DNA of 64,000 nt from Plasmopara viticola (Eukaryota > Oomycota > Peronosporomycetes > Peronosporales > Peronosporaceae): assembly GCA_001695595.3 (NCBI GenBank), contig MBPM02000095.1:1-64000 (forward strand), read 5' to 3'. Shown here one piece after another: positions 1 through 27,483 of the stretch. The notes under the pieces are model-generated. The model searched no databases. It had not been told where the DNA came from and saw only the letters and a list, made by a program, of their open reading frames with translations. How positions within the stretch are numbered: position 1 is the stretch's first letter; every line of letters starts with the position of its first letter. The translations under genes were made by a program, and so were the position numbers.

Positions 1-11
1 ACCAATTGACC
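1..11 (-). tRNA. tRNA-Leu(AAG) type A, partial at window edge
   Basis: Only the 5' end of the gene (acceptor strand GGTCAAT and the next few bases) is inside the window. The flank that follows is identical to the other A copies. Confidence 0.6.
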
Positions 12-266
12 GATAGACACTCGATCATACGTTTATTTGTAGAGGAATTTAAATACCCCAACAAAAGGCAGCTGTGGTAATAACAGCTTGTTTTACTCAT
101 ATTTATTATGGGATGCAAGGGCACCCATTATACATACAACTTAGAAAGGATTACAGCCGTCACTTCCGTAATATGCTGCATACTGTATCATAGAGGTCAA
201 AGGGACACTTAAACAAGGCTTCTGAGTGACATTGAGGTGCGAGGAAGGCAACAGAATAGCTGCTAC

Positions 267-276
267 AAAAAGAAAA
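267..276 (-). terminator. Pol III oligo-T terminator after type B sequence (representative)
   Basis: TTTTCTTTTT on the minus strand lies just downstream of the B sequence. B copies typically have a T5 run, slightly stronger than the A copies; the CAAAGAG subclass reduces it. Confidence 0.55.
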
Positions 277-283
277 TTTATGT

Positions 284-362
284 TGGCCAGTGTGGGATTC
301 GAACCCACGCCCTTCTTGACCAAAGCTTACACTGGCGCCTTAGACCGCTTCGCCGATCAACC
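284..362 (-). pseudogene. tRNA-Leu-like pseudogene, type B (reference)
   Basis: 79 nt, related to type A throughout. The T-arm and B box are intact. The anticodon arm (CCAGTGTAAGCTTTGG) is one base short with a T-T clash, the D-stem is GGC facing GGC, and the acceptor usually GGTCGAT facing ACTGGCC has a mismatch (here GGTTGAT). The damage is shared by all B copies, so it predates amplification. An unusual but functional tRNA or a stable Pol III RNA cannot be ruled out. Confidence 0.7.
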
Positions 363-630
363 ACTCGGTACTAGATCAAGCTTTCACGAAAAAGAAACAT
401 AGCAAACTCACAGTCCATCAGCAAAACAATTTTGGAAAGAATACCGTGATCAGCCCATAAGCTTACATTGTATTTAAGAGGCGACATCGACAACCCATAA
501 TGAAATGCTCCAATATAACGGAATCTTACTTCCACTTTAAGTGTATTTCGGTGTGGGGACGTTAAAGAGACACTCAACAAAGCTATAACGTAACATAAAG
601 GCGCAAATAATGCAACAATCTCACTGCTAC

Positions 631-644
631 GAAAAGAAAATTAA
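631..644 (-). terminator. Pol III oligo-T terminator after type A gene (representative)
   Basis: Two T4 runs (TTTTCTTTTC on the minus strand) start about 7 nt after the tRNA 3' end. The same pair follows nearly every A copy. T4 is the minimum for Pol III termination, so efficiency is uncertain. Confidence 0.6.
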
Positions 645-657
645 GTTGGCCAATGTG

Positions 658-668
658 GGATTCGAACC
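658..668 (-). promoter_or_regulatory. Pol III B box of a canonical A copy
   Basis: GGTTCGAATCC on the minus strand matches the TFIIIC B-box consensus GGTTCGANNCC. It is kept in canonical A copies and most early B copies, but is altered at the conserved A in class C (GGATCC) and in the GATACG B copies. Confidence 0.8.
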
Positions 669-708
669 CACGCCCTTTCGGACCAGTGCCTTAAACTGGC
701 GCCTTAGA

Positions 709-719
709 CCGCTCGGCCA
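709..719 (-). promoter_or_regulatory. Pol III A box of a canonical A copy
   Basis: TGGCCGAGCGG on the minus strand fits the TRGYNNARNNGG A box at the tRNA D-arm. Copies with GGTCAATTGACC or CACTTGACC change it to TGAC. Confidence 0.75.
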
Positions 720-1007
720 ATTGACCGATAGACACTCGATCATACGTTTATTTGTAGAGGAATTTAAACGAAAAGAACACCCCAACAAAAGGCAGCTGTG
801 GTAATAACAACTTGTTTTACTCATATTTATTATGGGATGCAAGGGCACCCATTATACATACAACTTAGAAAGGATAACAGCCGTCACTTCCGTAATATGC
901 TGCATACTGTATCATAGAGGTCAAAGGGACACTTTAACAAGTCTGCTGAGTGACATTGAGGTGCGAGTAAGGCAACAAAATAAATGCTACAAAAAGAAAA
1001 TTTATGT

Positions 1008-1048
1008 TGGCCAGTGTGGGATTCCAACCCACGCCCTTCTTGACCAAA
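1008..1048 (-). pseudogene. Type B copy truncated by deletion
   Basis: Breaks off after GACCAAA and continues directly with AACACTTTTGGTAAAG from the downstream spacer. ACCAAA occurs at both breakpoints, so the roughly 100-bp loss fits a microhomology deletion. The adjacent dimer is shortened to 626 bp. Confidence 0.8.
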
Positions 1049-1272
1049 AACACTTTTGGTAAAGAATACCGTGATCAGCCCATAAGCTTACATTGTATTT
1101 AAGAGGCGACATCGACAACCCATAATGAAATGCTCCAATATAACGGAATCTTACTTCCACTTTAAGCTTTATTTCGGTGTGGGGACGTTAAAGAGACACT
1201 CAACAAAGCTATAACGTAACATAAAGGCGCAAATAATGCAACAATCTCACTGCTACGAAAAGAAAATTAAGT

Positions 1273-1352
1273 TGACCAATGTGGGATTCGAACCCACGCC
1301 CTTTCGGACCAGTGCCTTAAACTGGCGCCTTGGACCGCTCGGCCAATTGACC
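1273..1352 (-). tRNA. tRNA-Leu(AAG), type A
   Basis: Two changes from the reference: the acceptor 3' strand is ATTGGTC (still pairable through G-U) and there is a C in the D-loop region (CTTGGACC on the + strand). Probably functional. It follows a shortened dimer. Confidence 0.75.
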
Positions 1353-1633
1353 GATAGACACTCGATCATACGTTTATTTGTAGAGGAATTTAAACGAAAA
1401 GAACACCCCAACAAAAGGCAGCTGTGGTAATAACAACTTGTTTTACTCATATTTATTATGGGATGCAAGGGCACCCATTATACATACAACTTAGAAAGGA
1501 TTACAGCCGTCACTTCCGTAATATGCTGCATACTGTATCATAGAGGTCAAAGGGACACTTAAACAAGGCTGCTGAGTGACATTGAGGTGCGAGTAAGGCA
1601 ACAAAATAGCTGCTACAAAAAGAAAATCTATGT

Positions 1634-1712
1634 TGGCCAGTGTGGGATTCGAACCCACGCCCTTCTTGACCAAAGCTTACACTGGCGCCTTAGACCGCTT
1701 CGCCGATCGACC
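1634..1712 (-). pseudogene. tRNA-Leu-like pseudogene, type B
   Basis: Standard B form with acceptor GGTCGAT. Confidence 0.65.
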
Positions 1713-1991
1713 ACTCGGTACTAGATCAAGCTTTCACGATAAAGAAACATAGCAAACTCACAGTCCATCACCAAAACACTTTTGGAAAGAATACCGTGAT
1801 CAGCCCATAAGCTTACATTGTATTTAAGAGGCGACATCGACAACCCATAATGAATTGCTCCAATATAACGGAATCTTACTTCCACTTTAAGCTGTATTTC
1901 GGTGTGGGGACGTTAAAGAGACACTCACCAGAGCTATAACGTAACATAAAGGCGCAAATAAGGCATCGCTGCTACGAAAAGAAAATTAAGT

Positions 1992-2071
1992 TGGCCAATG
2001 TGGGATTCGAACCCACGCCCTTTCGGACCAGTGCCTTAAACTGGCTCCTTAGACCGCTCGGCCAATTGACC
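1992..2071 (-). tRNA. tRNA-Leu(AAG), type A
   Basis: One change (CTGGCTCC on the + strand) at the D-stem/anticodon-stem junction; otherwise as the reference. Confidence 0.8.
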
Positions 2072-2352
2072 GATAGACACTCGATCATACGTTTATTTGT
2101 AGAGGAATTTAAACGAAAAGAACACCCCAACAAAAGGCAGCTGTGGTAATAACAACTTGTTTTACTCATATTTTTTATGGGATGCAAGGGCACCCATTAT
2201 ACATACAACTTTGAGAGGATTACAGCCGTCACTTCCGTAATATGCTGCATACTGTATCATAGAGGTCAAAGGGACACTTAAACAAGGCTGCTGAGTGACA
2301 TTTAGGTGCGAGTAAGGCAACAGAGTAGCTGCTACAAAAAGAAAATTTATGT

Positions 2353-2430
2353 TGGCCATGTGGGATTCGAACCCACGCCCTTCTTGACCAAAGCTTACAC
2401 TGGCGCCTTAGACCGCTTCGCCGATCGACC
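2353..2430 (-). pseudogene. tRNA-Leu-like pseudogene, type B, 1-nt deletion
   Basis: One G is lost at the acceptor/T-stem junction (GGCCATGTGGG on the + strand). Confidence 0.65.
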
Positions 2431-2718
2431 ACTCGGTACTAGATCAAGCTTTCACGATAAAGAAACATAGCAAACTCACAGTCCATCAGCAAAACAATTT
2501 TGGAAAGAATACCGTGATCAGCCCATAAGCTTTCATTGTATTTAAGAGGCGACATCGACAACCCATAATGAAATGCTCCAATATAACGACATCGCTCCAT
2601 CTTAAATGTATTTCGGTGCTGTATTTCGGTGTGGGGACGTTAAAGAGACACTTAAGAAAGCTATGCCGTAACATAAAGGCGCGAAAAAGGTATCGCTGCT
2701 ACGAAAAGAAAATTAAGT

Positions 2719-2798
2719 TGGCCAATGTGGGATTCGAACCCACGCCCTTTCGGACCAATGACTTAAACTGGCGCCTTAGACCGCTCGGTCAATTGACC
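2719..2798 (-). tRNA. tRNA-Leu(AAG), type A, variant
   Basis: Changes: anticodon stem CCAGT/ATTGG (one G-U), base 37 G to T, and the D-arm GGTC form that alters the A box. The anticodon is still AAG. Confidence 0.65.
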
Positions 2799-3079
2799 GA
2801 TAGACACTCGGTCATACGTTTATTTGTAGAGGAATTTAAACGAAAAGAACACCCCAACAAAAGGCAGCTGTGGTAATAACAACTTGTTTTACTCATATTT
2901 ATTATGGGATGCAAGGGCACCCATTATACATACAACTTAGAAAGGATTACAGCCGTCACTTCCGTAATATGCTGCATATTGTATCATAGAGGTCAAAGGG
3001 ACAGTTAAACAAGGCTTCTGAGTGACATTGAGGTGCGAGTAAGGCAACAGAATAGCTGCTACAAAAAGAAAATTTATGT

Positions 3080-3158
3080 TGGCCAGTGTGGGATTCGAAC
3101 CCACGCCCTTCTTGACCAAAGCTTACACTGGCGCCTTAGACCGCTTCGCCGATCAACC
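3080..3158 (-). pseudogene. tRNA-Leu-like pseudogene, type B
   Basis: B form with the GATCAACC acceptor end, as at 284. Confidence 0.65.
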
Positions 3159-3443
3159 ACTCGGTACTAGATCAAGCTTTTACGATAAAGAAACATAGCA
3201 AACTCACAGTCCATCAGCAAAACAGTTTTGGAAAGAATATCGTGATCATCCCATAAGGTTACATTGTATTTAAGAGGCGACATCGACAACCCCTAATAAA
3301 GTGCTCCAATATAACGGAATCTTACTTTCACTTTAAGCTGTATTTCGGTATGGGGATGTTAAACAGACACTCAACAAAGCTATAACGTGACATAAAGGCG
3401 CAAATAATGCAGCAATCTCACTGCTACGAAAAGAAAATTAAGT

Positions 3444-3523
3444 TGGCCAATGTGGGATTCGAACCCACGCCCTTTCGGACCAGTGCCTTAAACTGGCGCC
3501 TAAGACCGCTCGGCAAATTGACC
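3444..3523 (-). tRNA. tRNA-Leu(AAG), type A, variant
   Basis: Two changes, both in the D-arm (CCTAAGACC and CGGCAAATTG on the + strand). The anticodon and T-arms are intact. Confidence 0.68.
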
Positions 3524-3804
3524 GATAGACACTCGGTCATACGTTTATTTGTAGATGAATTTAAACGAAAATAACACCCCAACATAAGGCAGCTGTTGTA
3601 ATATTACCGTGTCCAGCCCATATTTATTATAGGATGCAAGGGCACCCATTATACATACAACTTAGAAAAATTTACAGCCGACACTTCCGTAATATGCTGC
3701 ATACTGTATCATAGAGGTCAAAGGGACACTTAAACAAGGCTGCTGAGTGACATTGAGGTGCGAGTAAGGCAACAGAATAGCTGCTACAAAAAGAAAATTT
3801 ATGT

Positions 3805-3883
3805 TGGCCAGTGTGGGATTCGAACCCACGCCCTTCTTAACCAAAGCTTACACTGGCGCCTTAGACCGCTTCGCCGATCAACC
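3805..3883 (-). pseudogene. tRNA-Leu-like pseudogene, type B
   Basis: B form with the GATCAACC acceptor end and a variable-arm change (CTTAACC). Confidence 0.65.
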
Positions 3884-4162
3884 ACCCGGTACTAGATCAA
3901 GCTTTTACGATAAAGAAACATAGCAAACTCACAGTTCATCAGCAAAACAGTTTTGGAAAGAATACCGTGATCAGCCCATAAGCTTTCATTGTATTGAAGA
4001 GGCGACATCGACAACCCATAATGAAGTGCTCCAATATAACGGAATCTTACTTTCGCTTTAAGCTGTATTTCGGTGTGGGGATGTTAAACAGACACTCAAC
4101 AAAGCTATGACGTGACATAAAGGCGCAAATAAGGCATCGCTGGTACGAAAAGAAAGTTAAAT

Positions 4163-4242
4163 TGGCCAATGTGGGATTCGAACCCACGCCCTTTCGGACC
4201 TGTGCCTTAAACTGGCGCCTCAGACCGCTCGGTCAATTGACC
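4163..4242 (-). tRNA. tRNA-Leu(AAG), type A, variant
   Basis: The anticodon stem has an A-A mismatch (CCAGT/ACAGG) and the D-arm is the GGTC form with a further change (CTCAGACC). Possibly inactive. Confidence 0.55.
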
Positions 4243-4513
4243 GATAGACACTCGGTCATACGTTTATTTGTAGATGAATTTAAACGAAAAGAACCAACAT
4301 AAGGCAGCTGTGGTAATATTATCGTGTTCAGCCCATATTCATTATGGGATGCAAGGGCACCCATTATACATACAACTTAGAAAGGATTACAGCCGACACT
4401 TCCGTAATATGCTGCATACTGTATCATAGAGGTCAAAGGGAAAGTTAAACAAGGCTGGTGAGTGACATTAAGGCGCAAATAAGGCATCGCTGCTACAAAA
4501 AGAAAATTTATGT

Positions 4514-4592
4514 TGGCCAGTGTGGGATTCGAACCCACGCCCTTCTTGACCAAAGCTTACACTGGCGCCTTAGACCGCTTCGCCGATCGACC
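4514..4592 (-). pseudogene. tRNA-Leu-like pseudogene, type B
   Basis: Standard B form; its downstream spacer is the AAGGCGCAAATAAGGCATCG version otherwise typical of A monomers. Confidence 0.65.
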
Positions 4593-4871
4593 ACTCGGTA
4601 CTAGATCAAGCTTTCACGATAAAGAAACATAGCAAACTCACAGTCCATCACCAAAACACTTTTGGAAAGAATACCGTGATCAGCCCATAAGCTTACATTG
4701 TATTTAAGAGGCGACATCGACAACCCCTAATGAAATGCTCCAATATAACGGAATCTTACTTCCACTTTAAGCTGTATTTCGGTATGGGGATGTTAAACAG
4801 ACACTCAACAAAGCTATAACGTAACATAAAGGCGCAAATAAGGCATCGCTGGTACGAAAAGAAAATTAAGT

Positions 4872-4951
4872 TGGCCAATGTGGGATTCGAACCCACGCCC
4901 TTTCGGACCAGTGCCTTAAACTGGCGCCTAAGACCGCTCGGCAAATTGACC
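4872..4951 (-). tRNA. tRNA-Leu(AAG), type A, variant
   Basis: Carries the same two D-arm changes as the copy at 3444, so the two dimers share a recent ancestor two units apart. Confidence 0.68.
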
Positions 4952-5232
4952 GATAGACACTCGGTCATACGTTTATTTGTAGATGAATTTAAACGAAAAT
5001 AACACCCCAACATAAGGCAGCTGTTGTAATATTACCGTGTCCAGCCCATATTTATTATGGGATGCAAGGGCACCCATTATACATACAACTTAGAAAAATT
5101 TACAGCCGACACTTCCGTAATATGCTGCATACTGTATCATAGAGGTCAAATTGGCAGTTAAACAAGGCTGCTGAGTGACATTGAGGTGCGAGTAAGGCAA
5201 CAAAATAGCTGCTACAAAAAGAAAATTTATGT

Positions 5233-5311
5233 TGGCCAGTGTGGGATTCGAACCCACGCCCTTCTTGACCAAAGCTTACACTGGCGCCTTAGACCGCTTC
5301 GCCGATCGACC
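5233..5311 (-). pseudogene. tRNA-Leu-like pseudogene, type B
   Basis: Standard B form. Confidence 0.65.
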
Positions 5312-5590
5312 ACTCGGTACTAGATGAAGCTTTCACGATAAAGAAACATAGCAAACTCACAGTCCATCAGCAAAATAGTTTTGGAAAGAATACCGTGATC
5401 AGCCCATAAGCTTACATTGTATTTAAGAGGCGACATCGACAACCCATAATGAAATGCTCCAATATAACGGAATCTTACTTCCACTTTAGGCTGTATTTCG
5501 GTGTGGGGATGTTAAACAAACACTCAACAAAGCTATAACGTAACAGAAAGGCGCAAATAAGGCATCGCTGGTACGAAAAGAAAATTAAGT

Positions 5591-5669
5591 TGGCCAGTGT
5601 GGGATTCGAACCCACGCCCTTCTTGACCAAAGCTTACACTGGCGCCTTAGACCGCTCGGCCAATTGACC
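5591..5669 (-). pseudogene. A/B hybrid tRNA-Leu-like copy
   Basis: The 3' half (T-arm, variable arm and anticodon arm with CCAAAGCTTACACTGG) is type B, while the D-arm and 5' acceptor (CTCGGCCAATTGACC) are type A. The downstream spacer is type A. This looks like exchange or gene conversion between the two monomer types. Confidence 0.8.
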
Positions 5670-5944
5670 GATAGACACTCGGTCATACGTTTATTTGTAG
5701 ATGATTTTGAACGAAAAGAACACCGCAACATAAGGCAGCTGTTGTAATATTACCGTGTTCAGCCCATATTTATAATGGGATGCAAGGGCACCCATTATAC
5801 ATACAACTTAGAGAGGATTACTGCCTTTTCTTCCAGAATATGCTGCATACTGTATCATAGAGGTCAAAGGGAAAGTTAAATAAGGCTGGTGAGTGACATT
5901 AAGGTGCAAATAAGGCCTCGCTGCTACAAAAAGAAAATTTATGT

Positions 5945-6023
5945 TGGCCAGTGTGGGATTCGAACCCACGCCCTTCTTGACCAAAGCTTACACTGGCGCC
6001 TTAGACCGCTTCGCCGATCGACC
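5945..6023 (-). pseudogene. tRNA-Leu-like pseudogene, type B
   Basis: Standard B form, directly after the A/B hybrid monomer. Confidence 0.65.
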
Positions 6024-6302
6024 ACTCGGTACTAGATCAAGCTTTCACGATAAAGAAACATAGCAAACTCACAGTCCATCACCAAAACAGTTTTGGAAAG
6101 AATACCGTGATCAGCCCATAAGCTTTCATTGTATTGAAGAGGCGACATCGACAACCCATAATGAAGTGCTCCAATATAACGGAATCTTACTTTCACTTTA
6201 AGCTGTATTTCGGTGTGGGAATGTTAAACAGACATTCAACAAAGCTATGACGTGACATAAAGGTGCAAATAAGGCATCGCTGGTACGAAAAGAAAGTTAA
6301 AT

Positions 6303-6382
6303 TGGCCAATGTGGGATTCGAAGCCACGCCCTTTCGGACCTATGCCTTAAACTGGCGCCTCAGACCGCTCGGTCAATTGACC
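6303..6382 (-). tRNA. tRNA-Leu(AAG), type A, damaged
   Basis: Shares the D-arm changes of the copy at 4163, adds a T-stem mismatch (GAAGCCACG on the + strand) and has a damaged anticodon stem (CCTATGCC). Likely inactive. Confidence 0.5.
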
Positions 6383-6655
6383 GATAGACACTCGGTCATA
6401 CGTTTATCTGTAGATGAATTTAAACGAAAAGAACACCCCAACATAAGGCAGCTGTGGTAATATTATCGTGTTCAGCCCATATTCATTATGGGATGCAAGG
6501 GCACCCATTATACATACAACTTAGAGAGGATTACAGCTCACTTCCGTAATATGCTGCATACTGTATCATAGAGGTCAAAGGGAAAGTTAAACAAGGCTAG
6601 TGAGTGACATTAAGGCGCAAATAAGGCATCGCTGCTACAAAAAGAAAATTTATGT

Positions 6656-6734
6656 TGGCCAGTGTGGGATTCGAACCCACGCCCTTCTTGACCAAAGCTT
6701 ACACTGGCGCCTTAGACCGCTTCGCCGATCGACC
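6656..6734 (-). pseudogene. tRNA-Leu-like pseudogene, type B
   Basis: Standard B form with an A-like spacer. Confidence 0.65.
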
Positions 6735-7013
6735 ACTCGGTACTAGATCAAGCTTTCACGATAAAGAAACATAGCAAACTCACAGTCCATCAGCAAAACA
6801 GTTTTGGAAAGAATACCGTGATCAGCCCATAAGCTTACATTGTATTTAAGAGGCGACATCGACAACCCATAATGAAATGCTCCAATATAACGGAATCTTA
6901 CTTCCACTTTAAGCTGTATTTCGGTGTGGGGATGTTAAACAGACACTCAACAAAGCTATAACGTAACATAAAGGCGCAAATAAGGCATCGCTGGTACGAA
7001 AAGAAAATTAAGT

Positions 7014-7093
7014 TGGCCAATGTGGGATTCGAACCCACGCCCTTTCGGACCAGTGCCTTAAACTGGCGCCTTAGACCGCTCGGCCAATTGACC
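7014..7093 (-). tRNA. tRNA-Leu(AAG), type A, canonical
   Basis: Identical to the 80-nt reference. The 5' flank has lost the GTAGATG piece present in neighbours. Confidence 0.92.
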
Positions 7094-7369
7094 GATAGAC
7101 ACTCGATCATACGTTTATTTATGAATCTAAACGAAAAGAACACCCCAACATAAGGCAGCTGTGGTAATATTACCGTGTCAGCCCATATTTATTATAGGAT
7201 GCAAGGGCACCCATTATACATACAACTTAGAAAAATTTACAGCCGACACTTCCGTAATATGCTGCATACTGTATCATAGAGGTCAAATTGGCAGTTAAAC
7301 AAGGCTGCTGAGTGACATTGAGGTGCGAGTAAGGCAACAAAATAGCTGCTACAAAAAGAAAATTTATGT

Positions 7370-7448
7370 TGGCCAGTGTGGGATTCGAACCCACGCCCTT
7401 CTTGACCAAAGCTTACACTGGCGCCTTAGACCGCTTCGCCGATCGACC
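7370..7448 (-). pseudogene. tRNA-Leu-like pseudogene, type B
   Basis: Standard B form. Confidence 0.65.
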
Positions 7449-7725
7449 ACTCGGTACTAGATCAAGCTTTCACGATAAAGAAACATAGCAAACTCACAGT
7501 CCATCAGCAAAACAGTTTTGGAAAGAATACCGTGATCAGCCCATAAGCTTACATTGTATTTAAGAGGCGACATCGACAACCCATAATGAAATGCTCCAAT
7601 ATAACGGAATCTTACTTCCACTTTAAGCTGTATTTCGGTGTGGATTCTAAACAGACACTCAACCAAGCTATAACGTAACATAAAGGCGCAAATAAGGCAT
7701 CGCTGGTACGAAAAGAAAATTAAGT

Positions 7726-7804
7726 TGGCCAATGTGGGATTCGAACCCACGCCCTTTCGGACCAGTGCCTTAAACTGGCGCCTTAGACCGCTCGGCAATT
7801 GACC
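7726..7804 (-). tRNA. tRNA-Leu(AAG), type A, 1-nt deletion
   Basis: One C is missing at the acceptor/D-stem junction (CTCGGCAATTG on the + strand), removing part of the A box; the rest is canonical. Confidence 0.6.
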
Positions 7805-8084
7805 GATAGACACTCGGTCATACGTTTATTTGTATATGAATTTAAACGAAAATAACACCCCAACATAAGGCAGCTGTTGTAATATTACCGTGTCCAGCCC
7901 ATATTTATTATGGATGCAAGGGCACCCATTATACATACAACTTAGAGAGGATTACAGCCTTCACTTCCGTAATATGCTGCATACTGTATCATAGAGGTCA
8001 AACAGACACTCAAACAAGGCTGCTGAGTGACATTGAGGTGCGAGTAAGGCAACAAAATAGCTGCTACAAAAAGAAAATTTATGT

Positions 8085-8163
8085 TGGCCAGTGTGGGATT
8101 CGAACCCACGCCCTTCTTGACCAAAGCTTACACTGGCGCCTTAGACCGCTTCGCCGATCGACC
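8085..8163 (-). pseudogene. tRNA-Leu-like pseudogene, type B
   Basis: Standard B form. Confidence 0.65.
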
Positions 8164-8442
8164 ACTCGGTACTAGATCAAGCTTTCACGATAAAGAAACA
8201 TAGCAAACTCACAGTCCATCAGCAAAACAGTTTTGGAAAGAATACCGTGATCAGCCCATAAGCTTACATTGTATTTAAGAGGCGACATCGACAACCCATA
8301 ATGAAATGCTCCAATATAACGGAATCTTACTTCCACTTTAAGCTGTATTTCGGTGTGGGGATGTTAAACAGACACTCAACAAAGCTATAACGTAACATAA
8401 AGGCGCAAATAAGGCATCGCTGGTACGAAAAGAAAATTAAGT

Positions 8443-8522
8443 TGGCCAATGTGGGATTCGAACCCACGCCCTTTCGGACCAGTGCCTTAAACTGGCGCCT
8501 TAGACCGCTCGGCCAATTGACC
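8443..8522 (-). tRNA. tRNA-Leu(AAG), type A, canonical
   Basis: Identical to the reference gene. Confidence 0.92.
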
Positions 8523-8797
8523 GATAGACACTCGGTCATACGTTTATTTGTAGATGAATTTAAACGAAAAGAACACCCCAACATAAGGCAGCTGTGGTAA
8601 TATTACCGTGTTCAGCCCATATTTATTATGGGATGCAAGGGCACCCATTATACATACAACTTAGAGAGGATTACAGCCTTTTCTTCCAGAATATGCTGCA
8701 TACTGTATCATAGAGGTCAAAGGGAAAGTTAAATAAGGCTGGTGAGTGACATTAAGGCGCAAATAAGGCATCGCTGCTACAAAAAGAAAATTTATGT

Positions 8798-8876
8798 TGG
8801 CCAGTGTGGGATTCGAACCCACGCCCTTCTTGACCAAAGCTTACACTGGCGCCTTAGACCGCTTCGCCGATCGACC
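8798..8876 (-). pseudogene. tRNA-Leu-like pseudogene, type B
   Basis: Standard B form with an A-like spacer. Confidence 0.65.
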
Positions 8877-9154
8877 ACTCGGTACTAGATCAAGCTTTCA
8901 CGATAAAGGAACATAGCAAACTCACAGTCCATCAGCAAAACAGTTTTGGAAGAATACCGTGATCAGCCCATAAGCTTTCATTGTATTGAAGAGGCGACAT
9001 CGACAACCCATAATGAAGTGCTCCAATATAACGGAATCTTACTTTCACTTTGGGCTGTATTTCGGTGTGGGGATGATAAACAGACACTCAACAAAGCTAT
9101 AACGTGACATAAAGGCGCAAAAAAGGCATCGCTGGTACGAAAAGAAAATTAAGT

Positions 9155-9947: not shown

Positions 9948-9980
9948 GATTGACACTCGGTCATACGTTTATTTGTAGAT

Positions 9981-18262: not shown

Positions 18263-18541
18263 ACTCGGTACTAGATCAAGCTTTCACGATAAAGAAACAT
18301 AGCAAACTCACAGTCCATCAGCAAAATAGTTTTGGAAAGAATACCGTGATCAGCCCATAAGCTTATATTGTATTTAAGAGGCGACATCGACAACCCTTAA
18401 TGAATTGCTCCAATATAACGGAATCTTACTTCCACTTTAAGCTGTATTTCGGTGTGGGGATGTTGAAGAGACACTCAACAAAGCTATAACGTGACATAAA
18501 GGCGCAAATAAGGCATCGCTGCTACGAAAAGAAAATTAAGT

Positions 18542-18621
18542 TGGCCAATGTGGGATTCGAACCCACGCCCTTTCGGACCAGTGCCTTATACCGGCGCCAT
18601 AGACCGCTCGGTCAATTGACC
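18542..18621 (-). tRNA. tRNA-Leu(AAG), type A class T
   Basis: Class T anticodon arm with a canonical acceptor 3' strand (ATTGGCC) and intact T-arm; the D-arm is altered (GCCATAGACC and GGTC). Confidence 0.55.
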
Positions 18622-18905
18622 GATAGACACTCGGTCATACGTTTATTTGTAGATGAATTTAAACGAAAAGAACACCCCACATAAGGCAGCTGTGGTAATA
18701 TTAACGTGTTCAGCCCATATTTATTGTAGGATGCAAGGGCACCCATTATACATACAACTTAGAAAGGATTACTGCCTTCACTTCCGTAATATGCTGCATA
18801 CTGTATCATAGAGGTCAAGGGAAAGTTAAACAAGGCTGCTGAGTGACATTGAGGTGCGAGTAAGGCAACAAAATAGCTGCTACAAAGAGAAAATTTTTTG
18901 TGTGG

Positions 18906-18984
18906 GAGCCAGTGTGGGATACGAACCCACGCCCTTCTTGACCAAAGCTCACACTGGCGCCTTAGACCGCTTCGCCGATCGACC
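18906..18984 (-). pseudogene. tRNA-Leu-like pseudogene, type B, GATACG subclass with altered 3' flank
   Basis: The usual TTATGTTAGCC junction is replaced by TTTTTTGTGTGGGAGCC, an insertion at the tRNA 3' end that also creates a T-poor trailer. Confidence 0.65.
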
Positions 18985-19260
18985 ACTCGGTACTAGATCA
19001 AGCTTTCACGATAAAGAAACAGCAAACTCACAGTCCATCAGCAAAATAGTTTTGGAAAGAATACCGTGATCAGCCAATAAGCTTACATTGTATTTGATAG
19101 GCGGCATCGACAACCCATAATGAATTGCTCCAATATAACGGAATCTTACTCCACTTTAAGCTGTATTTCGGTGTGGGGATGTTAATGAGGCACTCAACAA
19201 AGCTATAACGTAAATAAAGGCGCAAATAAGGCATCGCTGCTGCAAAAAGAAAATTTAAGT

Positions 19261-19340
19261 TGGCCAATGTGGGATTCGAACCGACGCCCTTTCAGACCAG
19301 TGCCTTAAACTGGCGCCTTAGACCGCCCGGCCAATTGACC
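19261..19340 (-). tRNA. tRNA-Leu(AAG), type A class G, damaged
   Basis: T-stem C-C mismatch (CCGAC), variable-arm change TTCAGA and D-arm change CCCGGCC. The anticodon arm is canonical. Confidence 0.5.
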
Positions 19341-19619
19341 GATAGACACTCGGTCATACGTTTATCTGTAGATGAATTTAAACGAAAAGAACACCCAACA
19401 TAAGGCAGTTGTGTAATATTAACGTGTTCAGCCCATATTTATTATGGGATGCAAGGGCACCCATTATACATACAACTTAGAAAGAATTACAGCCGTCACT
19501 TCCGTAATATGCTGCATACTGTATCATAGAGGTCAAAGCGACAGTTAAACATGGCTGCTGAGTGACATTGAGGTGCGAGTAAGGCAGCAGAATAGCTGCT
19601 ACAAAGAGAAAATTTATGT

Positions 19620-19698
19620 TAGCCAGTGTGGGATACGAACCCACGCCCTTCTTGACCAAAGCTCACACTGGCGCCTTAGACCGCTTCGCCGATCGACC
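19620..19698 (-). pseudogene. tRNA-Leu-like pseudogene, type B, GATACG subclass
   Basis: 2148 bp after the member at 17472. Confidence 0.65.
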
Positions 19699-19977
19699 AT
19701 TCGGTACTAGATCAAGCTTTCACGATAAAGAAACATAGCAAACTCACAGTCCATCAGCAAAATAGTTTTGGAAAGAATACCGTGATCAGCCCATAAGCTT
19801 ACATTGTATTTAAGAGGCGACATCGACAACCCTTAATCAATTACTCCAATCTAACGGAATCTTGCTCCCACTTTAGCTGATTTTCGGTGTGGGGATGTTA
19901 AACGGACACTCAACAAAGCTATAACGTGACATAAAGGCGCAAATAAGGCATCGCTGCTACGAAAAGAAAATTTAAGT

Positions 19978-20057
19978 TGGCCAATGTGGGATCCGAACCC
20001 ACGCCCTTTCGGACCAGTGCCTTAAACTGGCGCCTTAGACCGCTCGGTCACTTGACC
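19978..20057 (-). tRNA. tRNA-Leu(AAG), type A class C, damaged
   Basis: Same lesions as the other class C copies; its closest partner is at 22130. Confidence 0.5.
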
Positions 20058-20331
20058 GATAGACACTCGGTCATACGTTTATTTGTAGATGAATTTTAAC
20101 GAAAAGAACACCCCAACATAAGGCAGCTGTGGTAATACTAACGTGTTCAGCCCATATTTATTGTAGGATGCAAGGGCACCCATTATACATACAACTTAGA
20201 GAGATTACAGCCTTTACTTCCGTATTATGCTGCATACTGTATCATAGAGGTCATAGGGAAAGTTAAACATGGCTGCTGAGTGACATTAAGGCGCAAATAA
20301 GGCATCGCTGCTACAAAAAGAAAATTTATGT

Positions 20332-20410
20332 TGGCCAGTGTGGGATTCGAACCCACGCCCTTCTTGACCAGAGCTTACACTGGCGCCTTAGAGAGCTTCG
20401 CCGATCGACC
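20332..20410 (-). pseudogene. tRNA-Leu-like pseudogene, type B, GAGAGC subclass
   Basis: Matches 16752 in the tRNA part. Confidence 0.65.
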
Positions 20411-20690
20411 ATTCGGTACTAGATCAAGCTTTCACGATAAAGAAACATAGCAAACTCACAGTCCATCAGCAAAATAGTTTTGGAAAGAATACCGTGATCA
20501 GCCCATAAGCTTATATTGTATTTAAGAGGCGACATCGACAACCCTTAATGAATTGCTCCAATATAACGGAATCTTACTTCCACTTTAAGCTGTATTTCGG
20601 TGTGGGGATGTTGAAGAGACACTCAACAAAGCTATAACGTGACATAAAGGCGCAAATAAGGCATCGCTGCTACGAAAAGAAAATTTAAGT

Positions 20691-20770
20691 TAACCAATGT
20701 GGGATTCGAACCCACGCCCTTTCGGACCAGTGCCTTATACCGGCGCCATAGACCGCTCGGTCAATTGACC
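20691..20770 (-). tRNA. tRNA-Leu(AAG), type A class T
   Basis: Identical by eye to the copy at 17111 in the tRNA part. Confidence 0.5.
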
Positions 20771-21051
20771 GATAGACACTCGGTCATACGTTTATTTGTA
20801 GATGAATTTAAACGAAAAGAACACCCCGACATAAGGCAGCTGTGGTAATATTAACGTGTTCAGCCCATATTTATTGTAGGATGCAAGGGCACCCATTATA
20901 CATACAACTTAGAAAGGATTACTGCCTTCACTTCCGTAATATGCTGCATACTGTATCATAGAGGCCGAAGGGAAAGTTAAACAAGGCTGCTGAGTGACAT
21001 TGAGGTGCGAGTAAGGCAACAAAATAGCTGCTACAAAGAGAAAATTTTTGT

Positions 21052-21130
21052 TAGCCAGTGTGGGATACGAACCCACGCCCTTCTTGACCAAAGCTCACAC
21101 TGGCGCCTTAGACCGCTTCGCCGATCGACC
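21052..21130 (-). pseudogene. tRNA-Leu-like pseudogene, type B, GATACG subclass
   Basis: Spacer variant TTTTTGTTAGCC; it recurs at 23205 and 24992. Confidence 0.65.
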
Positions 21131-21410
21131 ACTCGGTACTAGATCAAGCTTTCACGATAAAGAAACAGGGCAAGCTCACAGTCCATCAGCAAAATAGTTT
21201 TGGAAAGAATACCGTGATCAGCCAATAAGCTTACATTGTATTTGATAGGCGGCATCGACAACCCATAATGAATTGCTCCAATATAACGGAATCTTGCTCC
21301 CACTTTAAGCTGTATTTCGGTGTGGGGATGTTAATGAGGCACTCAACAAAGCTATAACGTAAAATAAAGGCGCAAATAAGGCATCGCTGCTGCAAAAAGA
21401 AAATTTAAGT

Positions 21411-21490
21411 TGGCCAATGTGGGATTCGAACCGACGCCCTTTCAGACCAGTGCCTTAAACTGGCGCCTTAGACCGCCCGGCCAATTGACC
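21411..21490 (-). tRNA. tRNA-Leu(AAG), type A class G, damaged
   Basis: Same changes as the copy at 19261, 2150 bp away. Confidence 0.5.
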
Positions 21491-21771
21491 GATAGACACT
21501 CGGTCATACGTTTATCTGTAGATGAATTTAAACGAAAAGAACACACCAACATAAGGCAGTTGTGGTAATATTAACGTGTTCAGCCCATATTTATTATGGG
21601 ATGCAAGGGCACCCATTATACATACAACTTAGAAAGAATTACAGCCGTCACTTCCGTAATATGCTGCATACTGTATCATAGAGGTCAAAGCGACAGTTAA
21701 ACATGGCTGCTGAGTGACATTGAGGTGCGAGTAAGGCAGCAGAATAGCTGCTACAAAGAGAAAATTTATGT

Positions 21772-21850
21772 TAGCCAGTGTGGGATACGAACCCACGCCC
21801 TTCTTGACCAAAGCTCACACTGGCGCCTTAGACCGCTTCGCCGATCGACC
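21772..21850 (-). pseudogene. tRNA-Leu-like pseudogene, type B, GATACG subclass
   Basis: 2152 bp after 19620. Confidence 0.65.
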
Positions 21851-22129
21851 ATTCGGTACTAGATCAAGCTTTCACGATAAAGAAACATAGCAAACTCACA
21901 GTCCACCAGCAAAATAGTTTTGGAAAGAATACCGTGATCAGCCCATAAGCTTACATTGTATTTAAGAGGCGACATCGACAACCCTTAATCAATTACTCCA
22001 ATCTAACGGAATCTTGCTCCCACTTTAGCTGATTTTCGGTGTGGGGATGTTAAACGGACACTCAACAAAGCTATAACGTGACATAAAGGCGCAAATAAGG
22101 CATCGCTGCTACGAAAAGAAAATTTAAGT

Positions 22130-22209
22130 TGGCCAATGTGGGATCCGAACCCACGCCCTTTCGGACCAGTGCCTTAAACTGGCGCCTTAGACCGCTCGGT
22201 CACTTGACC
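22130..22209 (-). tRNA. tRNA-Leu(AAG), type A class C, damaged
   Basis: Same lesions as the copy at 19978, 2152 bp away. Confidence 0.5.
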
Positions 22210-22484
22210 GATAGACACTCGGTCATACGTTTATTTGTAGATGAATTTTAACGAAAAGAACACCCCAACATAAGGCAGCTGTGGTAATACTAACGTGTTC
22301 AGCCCATATTTATTGTAGGATGCAAGGGCACCCATTATACATACAACTTAGAGAGGATTACAGCCTTTACTTCCGTAATATGCTGCATACTGTATCATAG
22401 AGGTCATAGGGAAAGTTAAACATGGCTGCTGAGTGACATTAAGGCGCAAATAAGGCATCGCTGCTACAAAAAGAAAATTTATGT

Positions 22485-22563
22485 TGGCCAGTGTGGGATT
22501 CGAACCCACGCCCTTCTTGACCAGAGCTTACACTGGCGCCTTAGAGAGCTTCGCCGATCGACC
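22485..22563 (-). pseudogene. tRNA-Leu-like pseudogene, type B, GAGAGC subclass
   Basis: 2153 bp after 20332. Confidence 0.65.
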
Positions 22564-22843
22564 ATTCGGTACTAGATCAAGCTTTCACGATAAAGAAACA
22601 TAGCAAACTCACAGTCCATCAGCAAAATAATTTTGGAAAGAATACCGTGATCAGCGCATAAGCTTATATTGTATTTAAGAGGCGACATCGACAACCCTTA
22701 ATGAATTGCTCCAATATAACGGAATCTTACTTCCACTTTAAGCTGTATTTCGGTGTGGGGATGTTGAAGAGACACTCAACAAAGCTATAACGTGACATAA
22801 AGGCGCAAATAAGGCATCGCTGCTACGAAAAGAAAATTTAAGT

Positions 22844-22923
22844 TAACCAATGTGGGATTCGAACCCACGCCCTTTCGGACCAGTGCCTTATACCGGCGCC
22901 TTAGACCGCTCGGTCAATTGACC
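22844..22923 (-). tRNA. tRNA-Leu(AAG), type A class T
   Basis: Like the copy at 20691 but with the D-arm base restored (GCCTTAGACC). Confidence 0.52.
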
Positions 22924-23204
22924 GATAGACACTCGGTCATACGTTTATTTGTAGATGAATTTAAACGAAAAGAACACCCCAACATAAGGCAGCTGTGGTA
23001 ATATTAACGTGTTCAGCCCATATTTATTGTAGGATGCAAGGGCACCCATTATACATACAACTTAGAAAGGATTACTGCCTTCACTTCCGTAATATGCTGC
23101 ATACTGTATCATAGAGGCCGAAGGGAAAGTTAAACAAGGCTGCTGAGTGACATTGAGGTGCGAGTAAGGCAACAAAATAGCTGCTACAAAGAGAAAATTT
23201 TTGT

Positions 23205-23283
23205 TAGCCAGTGTGGGATACGAACCCACGCCCTTCTTGACCAAAGCTCACACTGGCGCCTTAGACCGCTTCGCCGATCGACC
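23205..23283 (-). pseudogene. tRNA-Leu-like pseudogene, type B, GATACG subclass
   Basis: 2153 bp after 21052. Confidence 0.65.
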
Positions 23284-23562
23284 ACTCGGTACTAGATCAA
23301 GCTTTCACGATAAAGAAACATAGCAAACTCACAGTCCATCAGCAAAACAGTTTTGGAAAGGATACCGTGATCAGCCCATAAGCTGACATTGTATTTAAGA
23401 GGCGACATCGACAACCCTTAATCAATTACTCCAATCTAACGGAATCTTGCTCCCACTTTAGCTGATTTTCGGTGTGGGGATGTTAAACAGACACTCAACA
23501 AAGCTATAACGTGACATAAAGGCGCAAATAAGGCATCGCTGCTACGAAAAGAAAATTTAAGT

Positions 23563-23642
23563 TGGCCAATGTGGGATCCGAACCCACGCCCTTTCGGACC
23601 AGTGCCTTAAACTGGCGCCTTAGACCGCTCGGTCACTTGACC
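23563..23642 (-). tRNA. tRNA-Leu(AAG), type A class C, damaged
   Basis: Same class C lesions. It is followed 355 bp later by another class C sequence instead of a B monomer. Confidence 0.5.
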
Positions 23643-23917
23643 GATAGACACTCGGTCATACGTTTATTTGTAGATGAATTTTAACGAAAAGAACACCCCA
23701 ACATAAGGCATCTGTGGTAATACTAACGTGTTCAGCCCATATTTATTGTAGGATGCAAGGGCACCCATTATACATACAACTTAGAGAGGATTACAGCCTT
23801 TACTTCCGTAATATGCTGCATACTGTATCATAGAGGTCATAGGGAAAGTTAAACATGGCTGCTGAGTGACATTAAGGCGCAAATAAGGCATCGCTGCTAC
23901 AAAAGGAAAATTTATGT

Positions 23918-23997
23918 TGGCCAGTGTGGGATCCGAACCCACGCCCTTTCGGACCAGTGCCTTAAACTGGCGCCTTAGACCGCTCGGTCACTTGACC
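23918..23997 (-). tRNA. tRNA-Leu(AAG) class C on a type B downstream flank (hybrid)
   Basis: The spacer and acceptor 3' strand (ACTGGCC) are type B, but the T-loop, variable arm, anticodon arm and 5' end are class C. The alternation A-B-A is broken here by one unequal exchange. The acceptor mispairs, so it is likely inactive. Confidence 0.5.
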
Positions 23998-24271
23998 GAT
24001 AGACCCTCGGTCATACGTTTATTTGTAGATGAATTTAAACGAAAAGAACACACCAACATAAGGCAGCTGTGGTAATACTAACGTGTTCAGCCCATATTTA
24101 TTGTAGGATGCAAGGGCACCCATTATACATACAACTTAGAGAGATTACAGCCTTTACTTCCGTATTATGCTGCATACTGTATCATAGAGGTCATAGGGAA
24201 AGTTAAACATGGCTGCTGAGTGACATTAAGGCGCAAATAAGGCATCGCTGCTACAAAAAGAAAATTTATGT

Positions 24272-24350
24272 TGGCCAGTGTGGGATTCGAACCCACGCCC
24301 TTCTTGACCAGAGCTTACACTGGCGCCTTAGAGAGCTTCGCCGATCGACC
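24272..24350 (-). pseudogene. tRNA-Leu-like pseudogene, type B, GAGAGC subclass
   Basis: 1787 bp after 22485; the spacing is irregular because of the hybrid monomer at 23918. Confidence 0.65.
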
Positions 24351-24630
24351 ATTCGGTACTAGATCAAGCTTTCACGATAAAGAAACATAGCAAACTCACA
24401 GTCCATCAGCAAAATAGTTTTGGAAAGAATACCGTGATCAGCCCATAAGCTTATATTGTATTTAAGAGGCGACATCGACAACCCTTAATGAATTGCTCCA
24501 ATATAACGGAATCTTACTTCCACTTTAAGCTGTATTTCGGTGTGGGGATGTTGAAGAGACACTCAACAAAGCTATAACGTGACATAAAGGCGCAAATAAG
24601 GCATCGCTGCTACGAAAAGAAAATTTAAGT

Positions 24631-24710
24631 TAGCCAATGTGGGATTCGAACCCACGCCCTTTCGGACCGGTGCCTTATACCGGCGCCTTAGACCGCTCGG
24701 TCAATTGACC
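24631..24710 (-). tRNA. tRNA-Leu(AAG), type A class T, compensated stem
   Basis: The anticodon stem is CCGGT/ACCGG, fully Watson-Crick, where the other class T copies have CCGGT/ACTGG. The loop is ATAAGGC (anticodon AAG). The acceptor 3' strand ATTGGCT pairs better than in 17111 or 20691. Confidence 0.62.
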
Positions 24711-24991
24711 GATAGACACTCGGTCATACGTTTATTTGTAGATGAATTTAAACGAAAAGAACACCCCAACATAAGGCAGCTGTGGTAATATCAACGTATT
24801 CAGCCCATATTTATTGTAGGATGCAAGGGCACCCATTATACATACAACTTAGAAAGGATTACTGCCTTCACTTCCGTAATATGCTGCATACTGTATCATA
24901 GAGGCCGAAGGGAAAGTTAAACAAGGCTGCTGAGTGACATTGAGGTGCGAGTAAGGCAACAAAATAGCTGCTACAAAGAGAAAATTTTTGT

Positions 24992-25070
24992 TAGCCAGTG
25001 TGGGATACGAACCCACGCCCTTCTTGACCAAAGCTCACACTGGCGCCTTAGACCGCTTTGCCGATCTACC
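24992..25070 (-). pseudogene. tRNA-Leu-like pseudogene, type B, GATACG subclass
   Basis: Adds two changes at the D-arm/acceptor (CTTTGCCGATCTACC). Confidence 0.65.
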
Positions 25071-25355
25071 ACTCGGTACTAGATCAAGCTTTCACGATAA
25101 AGAAACATAGCAAACTCACAGTCCATCAGCAAAACAGTTTTGGAAAGGATACCGTGATCAGCCCATAAGCTGACATTGTATTTAAGAGGCGAAGTCGACA
25201 ACCCATAATGAATTGCTCCAATATAACGGAATCTTACTTCCACTTTAAGCTGTATTTTGGTGTGGGGATGTTGAAGAGACACTTAAGAAAGCTATAACGT
25301 AACATAAAGGCGCAAATTATGCAGCAAACTCGCTGCTACGAAAAGAAAATTAAGT

Positions 25356-25435
25356 TGGCCAATGAGGGATTCGAACCCACGCCCTTTCGGACCAGTGCCT
25401 TAAACTGGCGCCTTAGACCGCTCGGCCAATTGACC
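25356..25435 (-). tRNA. tRNA-Leu(AAG), type A
   Basis: One change in the T-stem (AATGAGGG on the + strand); the rest is canonical. Confidence 0.72.
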
Positions 25436-25708
25436 GATAGACACTCGATCATACGTTTATTTGTAGATGAATTTAAACGAAAAGAACACCCCAACATAAG
25501 GCAGCTGTGGTAATATTAACGTGTTCAACCCATATTTATTATGGGATGCAAGGGCACCCATTATATATAGAACTTAGAAAGGATTACAGCCGTCACTTCC
25601 GTAATATGCTGCATACTGTATCATAGAGGTCAAAGGAAGTTAAACATGGCTGCTGAGTGACATTGAGGCGCAAAGAAGGCATCGCTGCTACAAAAAGAAA
25701 ATTTATGT

Positions 25709-25787
25709 TGGCCAGTGTGGGATTCGAACCCACGCCCTTCTTGACCAGAGCTTACACTGGCGCCTTAGAGAGCTTCGCCGATCGACC
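25709..25787 (-). pseudogene. tRNA-Leu-like pseudogene, type B, GAGAGC subclass
   Basis: Last member of the subclass. Confidence 0.65.
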
Positions 25788-26065
25788 ATTCGGTACTAGA
25801 TCAAGCTTTCACGATAAAGAAACATAGCAAACTCACAGTCCACCAGCAAAATAGTTTTGGAAAGAATACCGTGATCAGCCCATAAGCTTACATTGTATTT
25901 AAGAGGCGACATCGACAACCCTTAATCAATTGCTCCAATCTAACGGAATCTTGCTCCCACTTTAGCTGATTTTCGGTGTGGGGATGTTAAAATGACACTC
26001 AACAAAGCTATAACGTAACATAAAGGCGCAAATAAGGCATCGCTGGTACGAAAAGAAAATTAAGT

Positions 26066-26145
26066 TGGCCAATGTGGGATCCGAACCCACGCCCTTTCGG
26101 ACCAGTGCCTTAAACTGGCGCCTTAGACCGCTCGGTCAATTGACC
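26066..26145 (-). tRNA. tRNA-Leu(AAG), type A, T-loop change
   Basis: Has the GGATCC T-loop change and the GGTC D-arm, but retains the normal acceptor GGTCAAT. Confidence 0.55.
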
Positions 26146-26419
26146 GATAGACACTCGGTCATACGTTTATTTGTAGATGAATTTAAACGAAAAGAACACA
26201 CCAACATAAGGCAGCTGTGGTAATACTAACGTGTTCAGCCCATATTTATTGTAGGATGCAAGGGCACCCATTATACATACAACTTAGAGAGATTACAGCC
26301 TTTACTTCCGTAATATGCTGCATACTGTATCATAGAGGTCATAGGGAAAGTTAAACATGGCTGCTGAGTGACATTAAGGCGCAAATAAGGCATCGCTGCT
26401 ACAAAAAGAAAATTTATGT

Positions 26420-26498
26420 TGGCCAGTGTGGGATTCGAACCCACGCCCTTCTTGACCAAAGCTTACACTGGCGCCTTAGACCGCTTTGCCGATCTACC
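26420..26498 (-). pseudogene. tRNA-Leu-like pseudogene, type B
   Basis: B form with the CTTTGCCGATCTACC end also seen at 24992. Confidence 0.65.
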
Positions 26499-26778
26499 AC
26501 TCGGTACAAGATCAAGCTTTCACGATAAAGAAACATAGCAAACTCGCAGTCCATCAGCAAAACAGTTTTGGAAAGAATACCCTGATCAGCCCATAATCTT
26601 ACATTGTATTTAAGAGGCGACATCGAAAACCCATAATGAAGTGCTTCAATATAACGGAATCTTACTTCCACTTTAAGCTGTATTTCGGTCTGGGGATGTT
26701 GAAGAGACACTCAACAAAGCTATAACGTAACATAAAGGCGCAAATAAGGCATCGCTGCTACGAAAAGAAGATTTAAGT

Positions 26779-26858
26779 TGGCCAATGTGGGATTCGAACC
26801 CACGCCCTTTCGGACCAGTGCCTTAAACTGGCGCCTTAGACCGCTCGGCCAATTGACC
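26779..26858 (-). tRNA. tRNA-Leu(AAG), type A, canonical
   Basis: Identical to the reference gene. It is the last A copy before the array edge. Confidence 0.92.
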
Positions 26859-27139
26859 GATAGACACTCGGTCATACGTTTATCTGTAGATGAATTTAAA
26901 CGAAAAGAACACGCCAACATAAGGCAGTTGTGGTAATAATAACGTGTTTTACTCATATTTATTATGGGATGCAAGGGCACCCATTATACATACAACTTAG
27001 GAAGGATTACAGCCGTCACTTCCGTAATATGCTGCATACTGTATCATAGAGGTCAAAGGAAAAGTTAAACAAGGCTGCTGAGTGACATTGAGGTGCGAGT
27101 TAGGCAACAAATTAGCTGCTACAAAAAGAAAATTTATGT

Positions 27140-27190
27140 TGGCCAGTGTGGGATTCGAACCCACGCCCTTCTTGACCAAAGCTTACACTG
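27140..27190 (-). pseudogene. Type B copy truncated at the array edge
   Basis: The D-arm and most of the 5' acceptor are deleted (CTTACACTG joined to ACCACTCGATAC). From here rightward the monomers become strongly diverged. Confidence 0.7.
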
Positions 27191-27483
27191 ACCACTCGAT
27201 ACAAGATCAAGCTTTCACGTAAACATGATCATAGCAAACTCATGGTTCATCAGCAAAGCAGTCTTGGCGAGAATACCGTAATTAGCCATTAAGCTACCTT
27301 GGAGGTAAGAGGCGACATCAACTACCTATAAGAAAATGTTCTAATATACCGAAATTCTTTACTTCCGCGGTAAGCTGTAATTTGGAGTAGGGAGGGGGTG
27401 TAAGCGATAGTCAACAAAGCTATAACGTAGCATTACGGCGCAAAAAAGGCAACACAATAGCTGCTACGAAAAGTTAATTTAAA

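What the first reader, a model, noticed from the sequence alone, without database searches (positions are those of the whole stretch)
1..27200. A tRNA-Leu satellite: tRNA genes amplified as a ~717-bp dimeric tandem array
About 38 head-to-tail dimers carry a tRNA-Leu(AAG) gene and a degenerate sister, spacers included. Tandem tRNA arrays are known in Entamoeba. A dimeric tRNA array with satellite-like order in what appears to be an oomycete is not something I know to be described. It could serve tRNA dosage, act as a TFIIIC-binding chromatin boundary, or be a structural (centromeric or subtelomeric) repeat.
Basis: partly seen in the sequence, partly recalled or inferred. Interest (0 to 1): 0.9.

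Follow-up and report, generated by a model that had tools for sequence, protein, structure and literature searches.

The report
Decaying edge of tRNA-leucine gene array
The window starts inside a long head-to-tail array of leucine tRNA genes in what is very probably grapevine downy mildew, a layout already reported in a related species; what stands out is that each tRNA gene is paired with a damaged look-alike that varies as little as the real gene.

Summary
The array is real. Window 1-27,190 holds 37 tRNA-Leu(AAG) copies (A) and 37 defective tRNA-like sisters (B) of at least 100 bits, minus strand, alternating in a ~717-bp dimer. The window is bases 1-64,000 of contig C95 of a 92,937,831-bp, 358-contig genome, the published size and count for Plasmopara viticola. 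C95 carries a decayed edge: 8 A copies are canonical, against 45 of 45 in fetched C156; remnants reach 29,241. Genome-wide there are 195 exact A and 210 exact B cores.

Tandem mono-, di- and trimeric tRNA arrays, including a tRNA-Leu(AAG) one with variants often near an edge, are published for Phytophthora infestans, so the kind is known. New here: B fails as a tRNA (20.6 bits, cutoff 29) yet has as few variable sites as A (B 2/79, A 2/80, spacers 61/396 in 112 of 125 core dimers), as does its leader (1/60). B may be a retained Pol III/TFIIIC element or RNA gene; homogenisation bias or polishing is not excluded, and old remnants of B are not conserved. No support for a centromere or telomere.

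The parts
1..27190 (-). Dimeric tandem array: 37 tRNA-Leu(AAG) copies (A) and 37 tRNA-like copies (B) of at least 100 bits, alternating with five irregular spots; runs off the contig start
7014..7093 (-). Example canonical A gene, tRNA-Leu(AAG), 80 nt, 55.5 bits
7368..7448 (-). Example B element (tRNA-like). In the homogeneous core on C156 the B element scores 20.6 bits against the tRNA model (cutoff 29) and keeps the B box, an A box with one base changed, and a T-run
5589..5669 (-). Apparent A/B hybrid copy breaking the alternation
   Evidence: ARAGORN tRNA-??? at 5591-5669; best BLAST match is B at 96% over 5589-5664
9900..10078 (-). 97-bp internal duplication touching an A gene
23563..23997 (-). 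Two successive A copies with no B between
27191..29241 (-). Decayed remnants, at least two more dimers by best match with A-B order kept, 65-82% identity to the core dimer in the longer stretches

Best explanation
The locus is a decaying edge, on the upstream side of the genes, of a large tRNA-Leu(AAG) gene array of the kind known from Phytophthora, spread over at least five contigs of what is very probably Plasmopara viticola. Shown: the unit is a ~717-725-bp dimer of two ~360-bp monomers; A is an intact Pol III-type gene; B is an old sister with an intact B box, an A box with one base changed and a T-run, but an anticodon arm one base short; the fetched core is homogeneous and the C95 edge diverged. 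Inferred: unequal crossing-over and gene conversion homogenise the core, while copies at the edge escape and decay. Intact A copies supply tRNA-Leu(AAG); many edge copies probably add little. B travels with A and, more likely than not, can still bind Pol III factors; whether its RNA or its binding matters is open.
For: Array structure. Genome-wide 195 exact A 49-mers and 210 exact B 48-mers, 0 for the reversed patterns. Core against edge, canonical A: 45 of 45 (C156, first 33 kb), 6 of 6 (C116), 22 of 27 (C2, 2 remnants included), 49 of 56 (C212, first 40 kb), 8 of 42 (C95, remnants and partial copies included). Decayed dimers beyond the edge keep A-B order by best match. A-B identity 69 of 81 in the tRNA part, 151 of 288 elsewhere. 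Other tRNA arrays in the same genome: Lys(TTT) on C27 and C140, Thr(TGT) on C16; 222 exact Thr cores, the listed ones on C16 and C47. P. infestans precedent, with the few variants often near one edge. The Arabidopsis SYY array also has a core flanked by variable regions richer in pseudogenes (passages).
Against: The C95 flank shows no long match to the C116/C156 flank, so there may be two arrays, two haplotypes or misassembly; C156 is palindromic over 12.5 kb at 98%. No expression or TFIIIC data were available.
Confidence: 0.87

Rival explanations
1. B is a functional element in its own right: a retained Pol III promoter or TFIIIC site, or the gene of a non-decoding tRNA-like RNA, kept by selection next to each tRNA gene.
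For: In 112 core dimers (13 of 125 rearranged ones dropped) variable sites are A 2/80, B 2/79, B leader 1/60, A leader 12/60, spacers 61/396; none of 410 spacer windows of 79 bp is as low as B. With all 125: A 4/80, B 9/79, B leader 3/60, A leader 20/60, spacers 120/396. At the C95 edge (33 dimers) B has 11/79 and A 22/80 (Fisher p = 0.0497), and 0 of 410 spacer windows are as low as B. Of 133 core B copies counted on C116, C2, C212 and C156, 129 keep the exact B box and 133 a TTTT within 30 nt.
Against: In the two remnants that cover B, B agrees with the core at 49/79 and 50/79 but the following spacer at 94/129 and 96/129, so B is not kept outside the living array. At the edge the A leader (14/60) is nearly as low as the B leader (12/60). 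With all 125 dimers the 25-bp trailers vary like spacer (A 6/25, B 9/25). C156 alone has too few variants to tell. With stricter filtering (79 dimers) p for B is 0.019. Sites in one array share history, so p values are descriptive. No RNA data, no second species.
Confidence: 0.3
2. B is a dead pseudogene that hitch-hikes in the dimer; its low variation reflects conversion tracts, stretches shared with A, recent spread, or short-read polishing.
For: The 44 C156 dimers have 7 variable sites in 725, so recent homogenisation is strong. A and B share identical blocks. Remnant B copies are no better kept than spacer. The published assembly was polished with short reads (PMC6660063, passages).
Against: In the core the low-variation block includes the B leader, which A does not share, while the A leader varies like spacer. 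B is still low at the poorly homogenised edge.
Confidence: 0.55
3. The array is mainly a structural satellite (centromeric, subtelomeric or boundary) and its tRNA content is incidental.
For: Satellite-like order, dimer structure and decayed edge. A passage of PMC7290008 entertains a centromeric place for another oomycete satellite.
Against: A bodies vary less than spacers in the core; no telomere repeats in the 22 sequences searched, and the first ordinary gene-like ORF starts 1.3 kb beyond the last remnant; P. sojae centromeres are described as transposon-rich.
Confidence: 0.06

Closest known systems
Phytophthora infestans tRNA gene arrays, including tRNA-Leu(AAG) (PMC9584435, section 9 and passages read)
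   Same: Same group of organisms, same tRNA, tandem arrays, near-identical copies, the few variants often near one edge.
   Different: The Leu(AAG) array is reported there as monomeric; here the unit is a dimer with a defective sister. Their genes came from tRNAscan-SE, which might overlook such a sister, so the difference may be only apparent.
Entamoeba tRNA array units (PMC2652664, abstract read)
   Same: Tandem tRNA gene units, copies mostly uniform within an isolate.
   Different: E. histolytica units carry up to five tRNA genes with short tandem repeats between them; here one tRNA gene plus a defective relative.
Arabidopsis SYY tRNA-Ser/Tyr cluster (PMC12308677, passages read)
   Same: Expanded core flanked by variable regions with more pseudogenes.
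   Different: Units of one Ser and two Tyr genes; tRNA-like pseudogenes are marked at places, but no sister fixed in every unit was mentioned in the passages read.
Phytophthora parasitica satellites PpSat1/PpSat2 (PMC7290008, passages read)
   Same: Oomycete tandem repeats with one prevalent sequence in large arrays and variants in small ones.
   Different: The only 'tRNA' found in its main text is in a reference title; not described as tRNA genes in the passages read.

Membership tests
Oomycete tandem tRNA gene array | Head-to-tail units each with a tRNA gene, same strand | tested here: met
Oomycete tandem tRNA gene array | Near-identical copies in the core, variants near an edge | tested here: met
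Oomycete tandem tRNA gene array | Other tRNA families in the same genome also in arrays | tested here: met
   Lys and Thr arrays
Published di-/trimeric subtype of these arrays (not filed as this subtype) | Each gene of the unit is a predicted functional tRNA | tested here: not met
   B scores 20.6 bits, cutoff 29, and its anticodon arm has 16 nt against 17 in A (read from the sequences)
Functional tRNA-Leu(AAG) gene (A) | Cloverleaf model score, AAG anticodon, A and B boxes, terminator | tested here: met
   Canonical copies score 55.5 bits; in C95 14 of 37 A copies keep the A box and 26 of 37 the exact B box
Functional tRNA-Leu(AAG) gene (A) | Transcription and charging | not testable with these tools
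   no RNA data
Centromeric or subtelomeric satellite | Telomere repeats nearby, or location in a gene-free region | tested here: not met
   no telomere repeat in the 22 sequences searched; gene-like ORFs from 30,538 on
Centromeric satellite | CENP-A occupancy | not testable with these tools
   no ChIP data
TFIIIC/tRNA chromatin boundary | TFIIIC occupancy or insulation | not testable with these tools
   only B-box presence was counted

The most novel reading that the evidence does not exclude
Each tRNA-Leu gene of the array is paired with a conserved tRNA-like partner that can hardly decode but keeps Pol III promoter parts, a T-run terminator and its own 60-bp leader: a family of some 200 or more non-decoding tRNA-like RNA genes or TFIIIC sites amplified with a tRNA gene as one unit. 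Such partners could be overlooked in other oomycete arrays because tRNA finders score them below threshold, as ARAGORN and the Rfam cutoff did here.
Probability: 0.27. Interest if true: 0.65.

Novelty: new variant of a known kind. Interest (0 to 1): 0.4.

Why it matters
It adds a core-to-edge picture of how a tRNA array stays uniform inside and decays at its border, and it points to a testable oddity: a defective tRNA sister with as little variation in the core as the real gene. If B is functional, counts from tRNA finders would miss part of what such arrays encode.

Tried and rejected
Relatives: I searched IMG/VR viral contigs for 32- and 31-base A and B cores in the hope of oomycete sequence: 0 hits each. 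No collection of eukaryotic genomes other than the window's own was open, so no second species was compared by sequence.

Own genome: a search with the 717-bp unit was not scored (too many letters for one answer), so exact patterns were used; each listing stops at 100 places, so contigs beyond C212 that may carry the array are not named. A genome-wide tRNA scan scored 63 of 13,680 candidates and is no census.

Are defective sisters general? Thr(TGT) cores with a base missing from the anticodon loop number 7 against 222 intact, and no low-scoring extra tRNA (E up to 2) was seen between genes in 9 kb of Lys and Thr arrays. So among the three arrays looked at, the 1:1 partnership is particular to Leu.

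RNA folding of A and B was uninformative: the minimum-energy fold was not a cloverleaf for A either (z -1.80 for A, -1.08 for B). Rfam matches to mir-1490, Plastid-psbl-rps4 and YrlA lie far below cutoff and were dismissed.

Literature: nine searches gave, in the listings and passages I saw, no description of this Pl. viticola array or of a conserved defective sister; only open-licence papers are held and no supplement was read. PMC2888827 (passages), from 2010, says tRNA tandem repeats had until then been reported only in Entamoeba. PMC9667082 (passages) gives tRNA counts per chromosome and PMC11139960 (word search, no 'tRNA') adds nothing.
Full report
What is there. ARAGORN finds 38 tRNA genes in the window, all on the minus strand between 647 and 26,858; 28 of the 38 pass Rfam's curated tRNA cutoff. 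TRF reports a 359-bp period with 71.8 copies. BLAST with the canonical tRNA (A) and its sister (B) gives 37 A and 37 B copies of at least 100 bits, in A-B alternation apart from five irregular spots. The finding is confirmed; at these lengths and copy numbers chance is not an issue.

Where it is. The window is bases 1-64,000 of contig C95 of a genome of 92,937,831 bp in 358 contigs. The published Plasmopara viticola PacBio assembly is 92.94 Mb in 358 scaffolds (its abstract says 359) (PMC6660063, abstract and passages). The eIF4A protein of the window is 99% identical to one from Peronospora belbahrii and 97% to one from Pythium oligandrum.

The array is larger than the window. Exact cores of A (49 bases) occur 195 times and of B (48 bases) 210 times in the genome, with 0 matches of the reversed patterns; the 100 listed places of each fall on C2, C95, C116, C156 and, for A, C212. 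I fetched 70 kb of C156, 40 of 62 kb of C212, 30 kb of C2 and 12 kb of C116, and counted repeat units in the first 33 kb of C156, the first 40 kb of C212, bases 1,901-21,500 of C2 (its first 1,900 bases hold an inverted piece and were left out) and the last 5.4 kb of C116. There the alternation is nearly perfect, and canonical A genes number 45 of 45 on C156, 6 of 6 on C116, 22 of 27 on C2 and 49 of 56 on C212; on C95 8 of 42, remnants and partial copies included. The window holds a diverged edge. Beyond 27,190 at least two further dimers can be traced, by best match, to 29,241 with A-B order kept and 65-82% identity in the longer stretches, so the dimer is old. The C116 flank equals the C156 flank (99.4% over 5.1 kb), while the 17.8 kb of C95 flank compared shares only short pieces with the others (up to 333 bp with C2); C156 is also palindromic over 12.5 kb at 98%. 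One array with two haplotypes, two arrays, or assembly errors all remain possible.

The sister B. A and B monomers agree at 69 of 81 positions in the tRNA part and 151 of 288 elsewhere. Against the tRNA model B shows mismatched pairs in the acceptor and D stems; its anticodon arm is one base short (16 against 17) and the short variable-arm stem of A is weakened (read from the sequences). It scores 20.6 bits against a cutoff of 29, and ARAGORN does not call it apart from the hybrid. On C156 it keeps the exact B box in 45 of 46 copies, an A box with T to C at its first base in 46 of 46, and a TTTT within 30 nt in 46 of 46.

Is B merely decaying? I aligned 158 dimers that passed a strict A-B-A filter (33 from C95, 125 from the other contigs). 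Among all 125 core dimers, variable sites are A 4/80, B 9/79, B leader 3/60, A leader 20/60, spacers 120/396; the 25-bp trailers vary like spacer (A 6/25, B 9/25). Dropping 13 rearranged dimers gives A 2/80, B 2/79, B leader 1/60, A leader 12/60, trailers 1/25 each, spacers 61/396; none of 410 spacer windows of 79 bp is as invariant as B. Other cut-offs keep the direction; with 79 dimers the Fisher p for B is 0.019. C156 alone has too few variants to tell. At the C95 edge B has 11/79 and A 22/80; 0 of 410 spacer windows are as low as B and 33 as low as A; the leaders are alike there (B 12/60, A 14/60). Against function, in the two old remnants that cover B, it agrees with the core at 49/79 and 50/79, its downstream spacer at 94/129 and 96/129: outside the living array B is not held. 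Sites in an array share history, so p values are descriptive; homogenisation hot spots or short-read polishing could mimic the pattern, though neither obviously explains an invariant core leader that A does not share.

Mechanism. Shown: a homogeneous core and a diverged edge with older remnants. Inferred from established knowledge of tandem arrays: unequal crossing-over and conversion homogenise the interior, and edge copies escape. A is a standard Pol III-type gene; many edge A copies have lost promoter boxes (A box kept in 14 of 37, exact B box in 26 of 37), so supply of tRNA-Leu(AAG) should come mainly from the core. B probably can still bind TFIIIC through its intact B box (inference). Whether that, or an RNA from it, is useful is open; I put function at about 0.3.

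Comparison with the known. PMC9584435 (section 9 and passages read) describes thousands of tRNA genes in P. infestans in monomeric, dimeric and trimeric arrays, a tRNA-Leu(AAG) array with near-identical monomeric repeats, and variants often near one edge. In the same genome as this window, Lys(TTT) and Thr(TGT) arrays exist. The finding is a new variant of a known kind: the difference is the fixed pairing with a sister that fails as a tRNA. The centromere or telomere idea has no support here. TFIIIC boundary activity was not testable.

Noticed in passing
window 30538-35161: Gene cluster next to the array edge: LMBR1-like membrane protein (30.4 bits, just below Pfam's cutoff of 31.9), a DnaJ-domain protein and an eIF4A-type helicase.
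   Followed up: partly
window 53315-55266: Two ORFs matching the N- and C-terminal parts of TauE/SafE (the first below Pfam's cutoff), perhaps one gene with an intron.
   Followed up: no
window 60090-61079: 329-aa ORF in a GC-richer stretch with no Pfam match; it looks like a retroelement remnant (impression only).
   Followed up: no
G000:C16, L040: tRNA-Thr(TGT) array, ~313-bp spacing, in which 7 copies have a base missing in the anticodon loop plus a linked change, against 222 intact cores genome-wide.
   Followed up: partly
G000:C27 and C140 (L038, L039): tRNA-Lys(TTT) arrays with ~550-bp units in which genes come in two length variants.
   Followed up: partly
G000:C156, about 32500-70000: Contig palindromic over ~12.5 kb at 98% around an inverted stretch of the Leu array; possible assembly artefact or true inverted duplication.
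   Followed up: no
L024 and L025 (G000:C156:30001-50000), L031 (C116): Long ORFs (up to 1,064 aa) in the flank shared by C156 and C116, not identified.
   Followed up: no
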